Shown in pieces: positions 51,630 through 55,448 of a stretch of 64,000 nt of DNA; the stretch's first letter is position 1; each line of letters starts with the position of its first letter. The stretch spans positions 62,001 through 126,000 of the forward strand of contig NZ_QEKW01000014.1 of NCBI RefSeq assembly GCF_003096675.1, read 5' to 3'. A program made the position numbers and the translations under genes. The notes under the pieces were generated by a model. The model worked only from the letters and a program-made list of their open reading frames with translations, ran no database searches and was not told where the DNA came from. This DNA comes from Actinomycetospora cinnamomea. Its GTDB lineage: Bacteria > Actinomycetota > Actinomycetes > Mycobacteriales > Pseudonocardiaceae.

Positions 51630-52064
51630 CTACTCGGCGCCCGTGCGGGGGGTGAGGCCGGCGGCGCGGATGCCGGCGACGACGGCCTCCTCGTCGGCGG
51701 TCGACGCGTCGCCGCTGGCCCCGGCCGCGCCGAGCAGGGTGCCGGCGTCGTCGTGGATGAACACCCCACCGGGCACCGAGAACACCTTGCCCCCGGTCAG
51801 CGCGGCGACCGAGGTGAAGAACTCCGCCGAGTCGGCCGCGCGGGCCGCGATCGCCCGGCTGTCCATCCCCAGCCCGAGCACCCCGTAGGCCTTCGACGTC
51901 GCGACGTCGGGGCGCAGGAAGCCCGAGCCGTCCTCGCGGCCCAGCGCCACCAGCGCGCCGCCCGGGTCGAGCACGGCGACGGTGAGCGGCTTGAAGTCCT
52001 GCGCGCGGGCGTGCGCGAGCGCGGCGGACACGATGCTCTGCGCCTGCTCCAGGGAGATGCTCAT
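51630..52064 (-). CDS. GlcG/HbpS-family heme-binding-like protein
   Basis: 144 residues, one GlcG/HbpS domain: LEQAQSIVSAALAHARAQDF, VAVLDPGGALVALGREDG, ATSKAYGVLGLGM, FSVPGGVFIHDDAGTLLGA and the Gly/Ser/Thr-rich end SGDASTADEEAVVAGI. HbpS of Streptomyces binds heme and signals oxidative stress; many relatives are uncharacterised. No signal peptide here, so it is cytosolic. Divergent from the phosphatase/B12/STAS operon across a 231-bp spacer containing a palindrome. Confidence 0.82.
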   Translation of the reverse strand: MSISLEQAQSIVSAALAHARAQDFKPLTVAVLDPGGALVALGREDGSGFLRPDVATSKAYGVLGLGMDSRAIAARAADSAEFFTSVAALTGGKVFSVPGGVFIHDDAGTLLGAAGASGDASTADEEAVVAGIRAAGLTPRTGAE

Positions 52065-52295: not shown

Positions 52296-54023
52296 ATGGA
52301 CGGCCGTCCCGGCGTCCCGACGCGTGACGCCACCACGGACACCGGCCCGCAGACCCCACCGCGGCTCACTCCCGAAGCGCCGCCGGCCCCGCCGGCGCCC
52401 CCGTCGCGCGGCCCCGGCCTGCTCGACGGGCTCGAGGAGGGCGTGGTCGTCTGCGACCGCGACGGTGTCGTGCGCGCCGCCAACCCCGCCGCGCGCCGCC
52501 TGCTACCAGGACTGCGCCTCGGCGAGGTCGTCGACGTCGCGCGGTGCGAGTCGCTCACCCGCGCCGTGCACGAGGGACGCCACGGGCCCGAGAGCGTCGA
52601 GGTCGTCATCGACCACCCGGAGGGCGAGCGCCACCTGCGGGCCCGGCGCGGGCCGGTCCTCGGCCCGATCCCGCCTCCGCCGCTGGAGACCGGCGACGGC
52701 GACACGTGCTGGTACCTGCGCGACGTCACCGGCGAGCAGCAGCGCACCGACACCCTGCTCGCCGCCCAGGAGCGAGCCGCGTTCCTCGCCGAGGCCGGGC
52801 GGGCGCTGCACGGCGTGCTGCACCTCGACCGCACCGCCCGCCGGGTGGTCGCGCTCGCCGTCCCGCGCCTGGCCGCCGGTGCGACGCTGGTGGTCCGCCA
52901 CGACGACACGGTCACGTGGGCGACCGCCGAGCTCGGCGGCGGGCGCCCGCGCCTCGGTCACACCGGCACCGTCGACCTCGCCCGCGTGCCCCGCCTCGCC
53001 GCCGCCCTGGCCGGCGAGGGCGTGGGCGCGGGTTGCCCCTGGCTCGGCGAGGAGCTGCGCACGCTCACCGGACGCGACGCGGCCGGCGCCGGCAGGGCCC
53101 TGCGCGCCTGCCCCGTGCCCACCACCGGGATCGTCGAGGGTCTCGTGGTGCTCGCCGGTGCCCGTGCCGACCAGGCCGCCGACGAGCTCGGCACCGTCGA
53201 GGAGGACCTGCTCTCCTCCTACGTCGCGCGCGCCGGTGCCGCGCTGGCCGCCGCCGCGCTGCACGAGGAACAGGCCCACCTCGGCGCCGTGCTCCAGGAG
53301 AGCCTCGCCGCCCCGCGCCTGCCCGAGACCCCGGGCGTCGAGTGGGGCGCGGCCTACCGCCCGGCGCGCGAGACGCTGCGGGTCGGCGGCGACTTCTACG
53401 AGGTCGTGGCCACCGGGACGGGGCAGCGCTCGGCCTTCCTGCTCGGCGACGTCTGCGGCAAGGGCATCGAGGCCGCGGTGCTCTCCGGGCGGGTGCGGCA
53501 GTCGTGGCACGCGCTGCGCCTGCTCGAGGACCAGCCCGGGCGCCTGCTGTCCCTGCTCAACACCGCGCTGCTCGACGCCGTCGCCACCCGCGACGAGGAC
53601 CCGCGCTTCGCGACGATGGTGCTCGGTGACGCGCTCCCGCGGGACGACGGCACGGTCCTCCTGCGCCTGGCCACCGGGGGCCACCCGCCGCCGCTGGTCC
53701 TGCGCGCCGACGGCACCGTCGAGCCGGTGCCCGTCGCCGGGATGCTGGTCGGCGGCCTGCGCGAGGCCCGCTTCGGCGAGGCGGAGGTGGTGCTCGCGCG
53801 CGGTGACACCTGCCTGCTCTACAGCGACGGCGTGGTCGAGGCCCGCGGGCCCGGCGACTTCTTCGGCGAGGAGCGCCTGGCCGAGACGCTGCCCCGCTGT
53901 GCGGGAGCGCCGGCGCCGGTGATCTGCGAGCACCTCGAGCAGACCGTCGTCTCCTGGCTCGACGGTCACGACCACGACGACGTGGCCCTGCTCGCGATCC
54001 GCGCCCCGAGGAGGGACACGTGA
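52296..54023 (+). CDS. PAS/GAF-linked SpoIIE-type PP2C phosphatase
   Basis: 575 residues from ATG 52296 (GGAGG upstream). The N-terminal about 40 residues are Pro-rich. A PAS-like domain (about 48-160) starts LDGLEEGVVVCDRDGVVRAA and ends CWYLRDVTGEQQ. A GAF-like region (about 165-325) follows. The SpoIIE catalytic domain (about 340-575) has VGGDFYEV, LLGDVCGKGIEAA, ATGGHPPPLVL, LLYSDGVVEARG and DDVALLAI, supplying the metal-binding Asp residues. Such phosphatases dephosphorylate STAS anti-anti-sigma factors. Its stop overlaps the next gene; the STAS gene two down is the obvious substrate. Confidence 0.87.
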   Translation: MDGRPGVPTRDATTDTGPQTPPRLTPEAPPAPPAPPSRGPGLLDGLEEGVVVCDRDGVVRAANPAARRLLPGLRLGEVVDVARCESLTRAVHEGRHGPESVEVVIDHPEGERHLRARRGPVLGPIPPPPLETGDGDTCWYLRDVTGEQQRTDTLLAAQERAAFLAEAGRALHGVLHLDRTARRVVALAVPRLAAGATLVVRHDDTVTWATAELGGGRPRLGHTGTVDLARVPRLAAALAGEGVGAGCPWLGEELRTLTGRDAAGAGRALRACPVPTTGIVEGLVVLAGARADQAADELGTVEEDLLSSYVARAGAALAAAALHEEQAHLGAVLQESLAAPRLPETPGVEWGAAYRPARETLRVGGDFYEVVATGTGQRSAFLLGDVCGKGIEAAVLSGRVRQSWHALRLLEDQPGRLLSLLNTALLDAVATRDEDPRFATMVLGDALPRDDGTVLLRLATGGHPPPLVLRADGTVEPVPVAGMLVGGLREARFGEAEVVLARGDTCLLYSDGVVEARGPGDFFGEERLAETLPRCAGAPAPVICEHLEQTVVSWLDGHDHDDVALLAIRAPRRDT

Positions 54024-55120
54024 CCACGGCGACCGCCACCGATCCTGCCACCGATCCCGCCACCGATCCCGCCACCGATCCCGCCACCCTGCGTGCCGAC
54101 TACCTCGAGCGGCTCGCCGCCTCCGACGAGGCGGGCGCCGTCGCGGTGGCGATCGACGCGGTCGACGCGGGCGTCGACCCCGAGGTCGTGCTGCTCGACG
54201 TCGTCGCCGGCGCGCAGCGCGAGGTCGGCGAGCGCTGGGCCGCGGGGGAGTGGACCGTGGTCCAGGAGCACGTGGCCACCCACATCAGCGAGCGGGTCGT
54301 CGGCGCCGTCGCCCGGCGGGCGCCCGCGCCCGCCCCGACGGGCATCGGCCGGGTGGCCGTGGCGTGCCTCGACGGCGAGTGGCACGGGCTCCCGGCGCGC
54401 CTGCTCGCCGAGGTGCTCGCCCGCCACGGCTGGGCGGTGGAGTTCCTCGGCGCCTCGGTGCCCGCCGCCCACCTCGCCACCCACGTGCACCGCGCCGGCC
54501 CCGACGTCGTCGCCATCTCCAGCTCGCTGCCCTCGCGCCTGCCCGTGGCCCGCCGGATGGTCGAGGCGTGCCGCGCGACCGGCACCCCCGTGCTCGCCGG
54601 CGGCCCCGCCTTCGGCGCCGACGGCCGGTGGGCCCGCGCGGTCGGCGCCGACGGCTGGGCCCCCGACGCCCGCGCGGCCGCGGAGATGCTGGCCGCCGAC
54701 CCCGACGGCCCCTGGTTCGCCGACGGCCCCGCCGGCGCGGGCGCCGACGACCGCAGCGCCCGCGAGGAGCAGACCGTGCTGCACGCCCGGCGCGCCGAGC
54801 TCGTGGGCGTCGCCGCCGGCGCCGCCCGACCGCGCACCACCGACACCGGCGACGTCCCCGACGTCCCCGACGTCCCCGACGAGCTCGCCGACGACCTCGG
54901 TCACCTCGTCGACTTCCTCGCCGCCGCGGTCTTCGTCGACGACCCCGCGCTCTTCGAGGGCTTCGTGGCCTGGGTCGGGTCGGTCGCGATCCCGAACGGG
55001 CTGCGGGCCGAGGAGGTCGGGCCCGCGCTCGCCGCGCTCGCCGCCGCGCTGGCCGACTCCCCGCGCACCGCCCGGCTCCTGCGCGACGCCCGCGGGCGCC
55101 TCCCCGTGGTGCCGGCGTAG
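54020..55120 (+). CDS. CarH-like cobalamin-binding protein (possible B12/light sensor)
   Basis: 366 residues. The N-terminus carries a 12-bp repeat coding TDPA four times (residues 7-22). Residues about 24-100 form the helical cap with W73-x9-E83-H84, the Wx9EH motif of CarH-type AdoCbl photoreceptors. Residues about 110-225 are the Rossmann B12 domain with DGEWHGLP; His122 should be the lower cobalt ligand. A DVP repeat (279-287) follows. There is no MerR DNA-binding domain, unlike CarH. GTG 54020 overlaps the phosphatase stop. With a STAS gene behind it, it probably regulates a phosphatase or sigma switch. Cofactor form is inferred. Confidence 0.82.
   Translation: MTTATATDPATDPATDPATDPATLRADYLERLAASDEAGAVAVAIDAVDAGVDPEVVLLDVVAGAQREVGERWAAGEWTVVQEHVATHISERVVGAVARRAPAPAPTGIGRVAVACLDGEWHGLPARLLAEVLARHGWAVEFLGASVPAAHLATHVHRAGPDVVAISSSLPSRLPVARRMVEACRATGTPVLAGGPAFGADGRWARAVGADGWAPDARAAAEMLAADPDGPWFADGPAGAGADDRSAREEQTVLHARRAELVGVAAGAARPRTTDTGDVPDVPDVPDELADDLGHLVDFLAAAVFVDDPALFEGFVAWVGSVAIPNGLRAEEVGPALAALAAALADSPRTARLLRDARGRLPVVPA
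54026..54082 (+). repeat. In-frame 12-bp repeat at the start of the B12 gene
   Basis: GCCACCGATCCC-type unit (one copy has GATCCTGCC) repeated four times, coding T-D-P-A. A unit of 12 keeps the frame, so copy number can vary without loss of the gene. Confidence 0.7.
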
Positions 55121-55130
55121 GGACCCCGCC

Positions 55131-55448
55131 GTGGCCGACCTGACGATCAGCACCGAGCACGCGGGCGACGAGGTGGTCGTCGCCGTCGGCGGCGACCTCG
55201 ACTACGACAGCCACACCCGGCTCGAGGCCGCGATCGACGCCGCCCTCCACTCCGCCGTCGGCGGCTCGCCGGGCGGGCTGGTGCTCGACCTCGCGGCGGT
55301 CACCTACTGCGACTCGTGCGGGCTGCGCGTCCTGCTCGGCGCGCACCGCCGGGCGACCGAGGTCGGCGCCACGTTCGCCCTGCGCGGCGCCCACGGCCAG
55401 CCCGCCCGGGCGCTGCGGCTCACGGGCCTGGACCAGGTGTTCGGCTAG
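55131..55448 (+). CDS. STAS-domain anti-sigma factor antagonist
   Basis: 105 residues from GTG 55131, ten bases after the B12 gene stop. STAS pattern: LTISTEHAGDEVVVAVGGDL, GGLVLDLAAVTYCDSCGLRV and LRLTGLDQVFG. The Ser in CDSCGLRVL is the site phosphorylated by anti-sigma kinases; Cys follows it where Ser or Thr is usual. When dephosphorylated such proteins bind the anti-sigma factor and free the sigma factor. The matching phosphatase is two genes upstream; no anti-sigma kinase is in the window. Confidence 0.88.
   Translation: MADLTISTEHAGDEVVVAVGGDLDYDSHTRLEAAIDAALHSAVGGSPGGLVLDLAAVTYCDSCGLRVLLGAHRRATEVGATFALRGAHGQPARALRLTGLDQVFG

What the first reader, a model, noticed from the sequence alone, without database searches (positions are those of the whole stretch)
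52296..55448. Phosphatase / CarH-like B12 protein / STAS operon: a possible cobalamin- or light-gated sigma-factor switch
Three overlapping or tightly spaced genes code for a PAS/GAF SpoIIE-type phosphatase, a cobalamin-binding protein with the Wx9EH cap motif (W73, E83, H84) and a cobalt-ligand His122, and a STAS anti-anti-sigma factor. Seen: the motifs and the overlaps. Known: Wx9EH marks AdoCbl photoreceptors such as CarH, and SpoIIE phosphatases act on STAS proteins. Inferred: the B12 protein, which lacks any DNA-binding domain, passes a B12 or light signal to the phosphatase or STAS protein by contact.
Basis: partly seen in the sequence, partly recalled or inferred. Interest (0 to 1): 0.88.

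Follow-up and report, generated by a model that had tools for sequence, protein, structure and literature searches.

The report
Photocobilin operon with phosphatase and STAS
Three coupled genes in an actinomycete encode a vitamin-B12-and-bilin light receptor of a recently described kind together with the phosphatase and switch protein it probably controls, which could let light turn on a stress-type sigma factor.

Summary
The three genes are real, at the stated coordinates, and tightly coupled. The residues for AdoCbl (W73, E83, H84, H122) and biliverdin (H151, D292, W318) are present. A SpoIIE/RsbU-type PP2C gene lies immediately upstream in 97 of 101 Pseudonocardiaceae loci, 11 of 20 from a phylum sample and 44 of 57 from a class sample; STAS follows immediately in 68, 7 and 17. 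In nine other loci a GGDEF-type gene takes the phosphatase's slot. The phosphatase is therefore the likeliest direct target. Most likely mechanism (inferred): green light, or red light through biliverdin, breaks AdoCbl and changes the photocobilin, which alters the phosphatase and so STAS phosphorylation, an RsbW-type kinase and a SigB/F-type sigma factor encoded elsewhere. Photocobilins, and a possible link of SasPcob to STAS/SpoIIE, are already in print (PMC10979010). SasPcob itself has no adjacent phosphatase; its paralogue in the same genome does.

The parts
52296..54023 (+). RsbU/SpoIIE-type PP2C phosphatase: PAS-like unit (about 52419-52724), second sensor-like unit (about 52824-53156), long helix, catalytic domain (Pfam match about 53421-54005)
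   Evidence: Pfam SpoIIE 9.8e-43; model with pLDDT 86.8, best fold match the RsbU-RsbW construct of Rv1364c, 3ke6_A, Foldseek E 1.4e-12; Asp366, 385, 511 and 562 conserved in 108, 107, 107 and 108 of 108 aligned
54020..55120 (+). Photocobilin: four-helix and Rossmann AdoCbl-binding module plus C-terminal bilin-binding globin-like domain
   Evidence: phmmer to 8j2x/8j2w over residues 25-358, E 1.6e-79/1.9e-79; model pLDDT 91.6, Foldseek TM 0.80/0.88 to 8j2w_A
54236..54238 (+). W73 (= SasPcob W61, stacks on the adenosine)
   Evidence: W in 107 of 107 PP2C-linked homologues; role from PMC10979010
54266..54271 (+). E83-H84 (= SasPcob E71-H72, dimer-interface cap)
   Evidence: both conserved in 107 of 107 PP2C-linked homologues; role from PMC10979010
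54383..54385 (+). H122 (= SasPcob H108, lower axial cobalt ligand)
   Evidence: H in 120 of 120 homologues aligned
54746..55096 (+).
   Evidence: aligned to the SasPcob globin-like domain; helical in the model
54893..54895 (+). D292 (= SasPcob D270, holds biliverdin rings A-C)
   Evidence: D in 92 of 120 homologues, C in 12, V in 8; role from PMC10979010
54971..54973 (+). W318 (= SasPcob W296, packs on bilin ring D)
   Evidence: W in 106 of 107 PP2C-linked homologues
55131..55448 (+). STAS anti-anti-sigma factor (RsbV/SpoIIAA type)
   Evidence: TIGR00377 ant_ant_sig 66 bits, cut-off 53.45; STAS_2 2.8e-16
55314..55316 (+). Predicted phospho-Ser in the D-S-x-G motif of STAS
   Evidence: Ser in 75 of 75 operon STAS proteins aligned; that this Ser is the phosphorylated one is recalled from RsbV/SpoIIAA
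52258..52263 (+). TAGGGT, possible -10 element upstream of the phosphatase
   Evidence: same hexamer at this place in the window and 5 of the 14 other genus upstream regions aligned; weak

Best explanation
The operon encodes a light-gated partner switch. Shown here by sequence: a complete photocobilin with AdoCbl and biliverdin residues, an intact RsbU-type phosphatase upstream and a STAS protein with a conserved Ser downstream, coupled and conserved. [quoted passage not shown] Green light, or red light absorbed by biliverdin, breaks the Co-C bond, the photocobilin changes its fold and oligomeric state, and through contact, probably with the N-terminal sensor region, it changes the activity of the phosphatase on the STAS Ser (light probably activates, by analogy with the photocobilin-diguanylate cyclase AbDPcob). 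Dephosphorylated STAS binds an unlinked RsbW-type kinase and frees a SigB/F/G-type sigma factor. The sign of the response and the identity of the kinase and sigma factor are open.
For: Photocobilin identity: full-length match to SasPcob and AbPcob, fold, all chromophore residues present. The light signature GxxW, EH, GxxH, GxxxP given in PMC11796333 (passages) reads G70-W73, E83-H84, G119-H122, G144-P148 here. Partner: PP2C immediately upstream in 97 of 101, 11 of 20 and 44 of 57 loci, with a 4-nt overlap in 57 of the 97 family pairs. STAS immediately downstream in 68 of 101, 7 of 20 and 17 of 57. In 9 of the 26 loci without PP2C at -1 a gene matching the script's GGDEF profile takes that slot (6, 3; listed), in line with the published activation of a diguanylate cyclase in trans by photocobilins (PMC10979010). 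Some loci add a switch-kinase gene: a same-strand HATPase match within 4 genes in 16 of 101 family loci (5 tested, all PF13581 above cut-off), in several giving STAS-kinase-PP2C-photocobilin-STAS. Own genome: heme oxygenase, cobalamin adenosyltransferase, three SigBFG sigma factors over cut-off, one in a STAS-kinase-sigma cluster and one beside a kinase gene. Pairwise distances of photocobilin follow the phosphatase (r 0.94) more closely than STAS (r 0.79; 74 loci).
Against: No kinase or sigma gene lies in this locus, so the output half is inferred. 17 of the 26 loci without PP2C at -1 have no GGDEF-type gene there either (one, L263, has PP2C two genes up). Of the 16 kinase calls, two (L091, L115) are in proteins of about 370 aa, unlike RsbW, and two (L072, L073) are near-identical loci. 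Two of the GGDEF-labelled genes (L182, L185) look degenerate in the printed sequence, and only L180 and L186 were tested with Pfam. The phosphatase's N-terminal region is not exclusive to photocobilin: 5 of 41 matches, all in genus g17, stand alone. SasPcob itself, the stand-alone photocobilin with biochemistry, has no adjacent PP2C. No fused photocobilin-phosphatase or photocobilin-STAS gene was seen. Heme oxygenase was not found in 30 of 98 photocobilin genomes. In print, full-length AbDPcob stayed dimeric in light, and AdoCbl-only SasPcob acted in the opposite sense in the trans assay, so neither monomerisation nor the sign is assured. The distance correlation is confounded by shared ancestry and by STAS being short.
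Confidence: 0.62

Rival explanations
1. The photocobilin acts on the STAS protein rather than the phosphatase, as an in-trans version of RsbR, in which a non-heme globin domain is fused to STAS.
For: STAS immediately downstream in 68 of 101 family loci, with a 4-nt overlap in 46 of the 68. The RsbR globin domain has been used as outgroup to photoglobins (PMC10151467 passages). SasPcob has a STAS gene 356 bp upstream but no PP2C. Some loci without STAS at +1 have one nearby: 3 of 29 family, 9 of 27 class, 2 of 4 phylum.
Against: STAS is not at +1 next to 29 of the 97 PP2C-photocobilin pairs in the family and 27 of 44 in the class sample, while PP2C is usually kept; 26 of the 29 have no STAS match within 4 genes. 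Distances follow PP2C better. A GGDEF-type gene, not a STAS gene, fills the slot in 9 other loci.
Confidence: 0.14
2. The protein is a dark sensor of AdoCbl supply (or of bilin) rather than of light; adenosyl status sets phosphatase activity.
For: CarH-type proteins need AdoCbl to act, so cofactor level is an input in any case (recalled). Heme oxygenase is not universal among photocobilin genomes.
Against: The adenosine-capping and light-signature residues are conserved in all PP2C-linked homologues, and the close relative SasPcob is photoactive (PMC10979010). The bilin Asp is kept in 92 of 120.
Confidence: 0.12
3. The genes are co-transcribed members of a stress or light regulon without direct regulation of one by another.
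For: No fusion protein was seen. No contact was modelled, because the structure tool takes single chains. 17 of 178 loci have neither a PP2C nor a GGDEF-type gene at -1.
Against: Same order in 152 of 178 loci examined, mostly overlapping or closely spaced.
Confidence: 0.08
4. The B12 protein is a corrinoid protein of a methyltransferase system.
For: Weak NCBIfam matches to corrinoid proteins (pyl_corrinoid, MtgC, MtbC: 28-37 bits).
Against: Those scores are far below the cut-offs (215-370 bits). Full-length photocobilin match including the C-terminal domain. No methyltransferase gene in the operon.
Confidence: 0.01

Closest known systems
SasPcob, stand-alone photocobilin of Saccharothrix syringae (8J2W/8J2X; PMC10979010)
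   Same: Similar length, same domains and chromophore residues; about 50% identical.
   Different: The SasPcob gene (L068, identical over the 337 aligned residues of 8j2x) has no adjacent phosphatase; the window protein sits in a PP2C-photocobilin-STAS operon, like the paralogue L071 in the genome that holds SasPcob.
AbDPcob, photocobilin fused to a diguanylate cyclase (8J2Y; PMC10979010)
   Same: Photocobilin controls an enzyme; homologous sensor (E 1.3e-41).
   Different: Fused in cis, output is a GGDEF domain, and the bilin Asp is a His; here the sensor is a separate protein, the neighbour is a phosphatase and the Asp is present.
CarH / LitR AdoCbl photoreceptors
   Same: AdoCbl module with W-x9-EH and the His ligand.
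   Different: No MerR DNA-binding domain; extra bilin domain; NCBIfam CarH model 48.3 bits against a cut-off of 400.
RsbU/RsbV/RsbW partner switch (e.g. Rv1364c, Bacillus SigB)
   Same: RsbU-type phosphatase fold (3ke6 best match) and RsbV-type STAS with conserved Ser.
   Different: The likely input is a separate B12/bilin photoreceptor; no kinase or sigma gene in the locus.
YtvA/RsbR stressosome light input (recalled)
   Same: Light input into a STAS/SigB-type cascade; non-heme globin relatives.
   Different: Flavin LOV domain and STAS in one chain; here B12/bilin chemistry and separate chains.

Membership tests
Photocobilin | AdoCbl-binding four-helix plus Rossmann module | tested here: met
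   Pfam PF02607 and PF02310 above cut-off
Photocobilin | W-x9/10-EH cap and E/DxH cobalt ligand | tested here: met
   W73, E83-H84, E120-W-H122
Photocobilin | C-terminal bilin-binding globin-like domain | tested here: met
   Full-length alignment to 8j2w/8j2x and model match TM 0.80/0.88
Photocobilin | Biliverdin contacts Asp270 and Trp296 (SasPcob numbering) | tested here: met
   D292 and W318 in the alignment
Photocobilin | Binds AdoCbl and biliverdin; green/red photoconversion; light-dependent change of oligomer | not testable with these tools
   Needs purified protein
CarH | MerR-type DNA-binding domain and repressor model match | tested here: not met
   No HTH match; NF052513 48.3 bits against cut-off 400, matched over its B12 part
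RsbU/RsbV partner switch | PP2C phosphatase with metal-binding Asp residues | tested here: met
RsbU/RsbV partner switch | STAS protein with phosphorylatable Ser | tested here: met
   Ser present in 75 of 75 aligned; phosphorylation itself not testable
RsbU/RsbV partner switch | Cognate HATPase kinase and sigma factor | tested here: inconclusive
   None in this locus; several candidates elsewhere in the genome; a same-strand HATPase match near the operon in 16 of 101 family loci, two of them in proteins too long for RsbW
RsbR stressosome sensor | Globin and STAS in one chain | tested here: not met
   Separate genes

The most novel reading that the evidence does not exclude
Across Actinomycetia the photocobilin is the dedicated light-sensing subunit of an RsbU-type phosphatase, so that B12-bilin photochemistry directly gates partner switching of alternative sigma factors by green and red light; in other lineages the same sensor was re-paired with a diguanylate cyclase in the same gene slot.
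Probability: 0.55. Interest if true: 0.78.

Novelty: new member of a known kind. Interest (0 to 1): 0.6.

Why it matters
The photocobilin paper says that the function of stand-alone photocobilins 'is less clear'. The conserved operon names their probable target, a neighbouring RsbU-type phosphatase, and gives a compact three-protein system that can be reconstituted. If confirmed, light would act on stress or developmental sigma factors of many actinomycetes through vitamin B12 and biliverdin, and the module could serve as a two-colour optogenetic switch for a phosphatase.

Tried and rejected
Corrinoid methyltransferase reading: rejected. CarH membership: rejected for lack of a DNA-binding domain. 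SigB-type promoter (GTTT-N14-18-GGGTA, recalled consensus) upstream of the phosphatase: 0 of 107 against 19 of 710 control upstream regions; with the looser pattern 0 against 21, so no sign of autoregulation by such a sigma factor. Exclusive pairing of the phosphatase N-terminal region with photocobilin: comparing coordinates by eye, 36 of 41 matches lie beside a photocobilin; the other 5, all genus g17, do not. Heme oxygenase co-occurrence in 249 genomes: 68 of 98 photocobilin genomes against 73 of 151 others (Fisher p 0.001, not corrected for relatedness); suggestive only. Fusions: none in the 121 loci nor in the 60. A search of solved structures matched only the part of the phosphatase from about residue 324 on. 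A VIA-align search could not run. Gene calls in loci come from my own codon-position script, not from an annotation; starts can be off (the script began the window's photocobilin later than the GTG accepted here), some calls are cut or split (L090, L177, L289, L293, L295), and the STAS, kinase and GGDEF labels come from profiles that I built from these loci (E below 1e-3), so divergent genes may be missed.
Full report
What is there. The window lies in a genome whose nearest named relatives found are Actinomycetospora, family Pseudonocardiaceae (the family name is recalled taxonomy). Three genes run in one direction. A SpoIIE/RsbU-type phosphatase (52296-54023) overlaps by 4 nt a B12-binding protein (54020-55120), followed after 10 nt by a STAS protein (55131-55448).

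What the middle protein is. Its best solved relatives are SasPcob (8J2X/8J2W, E 1.6e-79 and 1.9e-79, residues 25-358) and AbPcob (8J2Y, E 1.3e-41); CarH entries follow at about 1e-7. An AlphaFold2 model from an alignment of 58 sequences (pLDDT 91.6) also has SasPcob and AbPcob as its best matches, TM 0.80/0.88 to 8j2w_A. It is therefore a photocobilin, a B12 and biliverdin photoreceptor (PMC10979010; I read parts 1-4 of 8 and some passages). Counting along the printed alignment, SasPcob W61, E71, H72, H108, H137, D270 and W296 correspond to W73, E83, H84, H122, H151, D292 and W318 here. The first four are conserved in all 107 PP2C-linked homologues, W318 is W in 106 of 107, H151 is H in 65 of 107, and D292 is D in 92 of all 120 homologues.

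Is the operon a unit? I fetched 100 of the 112 other matches found in 249 Pseudonocardiaceae genomes (98 of the 249 genomes have a match), the 20 best of 33 other matches from a phylum sample of 396 genomes (28 with a match), and 60 stretches covering the matches from a class sample of 394 genomes (68 with a match) that were not already held. Genes were called by script. With the window counted in the family set, PP2C is the gene immediately upstream on the same strand in 97 of 101, 11 of 20 and 44 of 57 loci (three of the 60 class stretches had no photocobilin gene called), and STAS the gene immediately downstream in 68, 7 and 17. In the family, PP2C appears at any other single offset within 5 genes in at most 3 loci. 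The 4-nt overlap is the commonest junction in the family (57 of 97 and 46 of 68). Catalytic Asp residues of the phosphatase and the Ser of STAS are conserved. The loci are related to each other, so these are not independent events; in the class sample 28 of 138 genera are represented among the matches.

Which partner is direct? Three observations favour the phosphatase. First, STAS is not at +1 beside 29 family, 27 class and 4 phylum loci that have PP2C; 26 of the 29 have no STAS match within 4 genes, but 9 of the 27 and 2 of the 4 do have one nearby. STAS without PP2C beside a photocobilin was seen only at SasPcob among the 26 loci without PP2C at -1. Second, in nine loci outside the family a GGDEF-type gene occupies the -1 slot (six, three; Pfam confirmed for the two tested, L180 and L186; L182 and L185 look degenerate), which fits the published activation in trans of a diguanylate cyclase domain by photocobilins. 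Third, pairwise distances follow the phosphatase (r 0.94) more than STAS (r 0.79) in 74 loci, although STAS is short. Against: SasPcob itself (L068, identical over 337 residues of 8j2x) has no PP2C neighbour, only a STAS gene 356 bp upstream, while its paralogue L071 in the same genome has the full operon. A related phosphatase stands alone in five genomes of genus g17. Seventeen of the 178 loci have neither PP2C nor a GGDEF-type gene at -1 (one of them, L263, has PP2C two genes up).

Output and cofactors. No kinase or sigma gene is in this locus. In 16 of 101 family loci a HATPase match is nearby on the same strand (five tested with Pfam, all confirmed); two of the 16 are in proteins of about 370 aa and so are probably not RsbW-like, and two are near-identical loci. 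The window's genome has 41 HATPase_c_2 matches, many of them presumably histidine kinases, three SigBFG sigma factors above cut-off, one in a STAS-kinase-sigma cluster and one beside a kinase gene, a heme oxygenase and a cobalamin adenosyltransferase. Heme oxygenase is present in 68 of 98 photocobilin genomes and 73 of 151 others. Among genomes of the fetched family loci it is present in 52 of 68 with Asp at the bilin site, 3 of 12 with Cys and 8 of 8 with Val: the Cys figure hints at a loss of biliverdin use, the Val figure speaks against a simple rule, and genera are not independent.

Mechanism. I commit to a light-gated partner switch in which the photocobilin controls the phosphatase. The sensor identity is near certain (about 0.97); the control of the phosphatase is likely (about 0.7); the whole chain to a sigma factor, without committing to the sign, I put at 0.62. 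The photochemical steps are taken from SasPcob and AbDPcob, not measured here; in print SasPcob becomes monomeric in light whereas full-length AbDPcob stays dimeric.

Known or new. Photocobilins are published. The same paper says, from interaction networks, that SasPcob 'potentially interacts' with STAS, SpoIIE and PP2C-like phosphatases. The earlier photoglobin paper (Schneider 2022) is not held and may describe such operons, so I make no priority claim. In the listings of my literature searches I saw no experiment on such an operon. What this analysis adds is the measured conservation of the operon, the ranking of the phosphatase as the more constant partner, the PP2C/GGDEF exchange, and the finding that the crystallised SasPcob is an exception to the usual gene order.

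Noticed in passing
window 51630-52064 (-): A divergent HbpS-like (PF03928, 'haem degrading', E 1.3e-26) gene shares the upstream region of the operon; a gene of 132-144 aa with a similar N-terminus was called at that place in 12 of 14 other Actinomycetospora loci. Whether it is linked to biliverdin supply is unknown.
   Followed up: partly
L068 and L071 (genome G224): The crystallised SasPcob (L068) lacks an adjacent phosphatase, while its paralogue in the same genome is in the PP2C-photocobilin-STAS operon; that genome is also not among those with a PF01126 heme oxygenase match at E 1e-10.
   Followed up: partly
L117-L121, L123, L125, L128-L130, L134, L135; L122, L124, L126, L127, L131-L133, L136: A second photocobilin type has Cys (12 loci) or Val (8 loci) at the position of the bilin Asp and goes with shorter phosphatases (medians 413 and 444 aa against 531). 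STAS at +1 in 1 of 12 Cys and 8 of 8 Val loci; heme oxygenase in 3 of 12 and 8 of 8 genomes. The Cys might bind a bilin covalently or mark loss of biliverdin.
   Followed up: partly
L117:7456-8355, L119:7445-8194, L121:7327-7995 (-, coordinates in the oriented locus): A B12-binding gene on the opposite strand lies downstream of the photocobilin; in L117 it carries a MerR-like N-terminus, in the other two the called N-terminus is shorter.
   Followed up: no
L257, L258: Tandem photocobilins: PP2C-photocobilin-photocobilin-STAS.
   Followed up: no
L175, L176, L180, L182, L185, L186, L278, L282, L284: A GGDEF-type gene replaces the phosphatase in the -1 slot; only L180 and L186 were tested with Pfam, and L182 and L185 look degenerate.
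   Followed up: partly
window about 54038-54085 (+): Short 12-nt tandem repeat near the start of the photocobilin gene encoding repeated Asp-Pro-Ala-Thr.
   Followed up: no
L204 (G000 C9, about 192,870-194,630): STAS, HATPase kinase and SigBFG sigma factor in a row: a candidate output for the light switch.
   Followed up: no
L197-L201 (genus g17): A phosphatase with a related N-terminal region stands without photocobilin or STAS neighbours in five genomes.
   Followed up: partly
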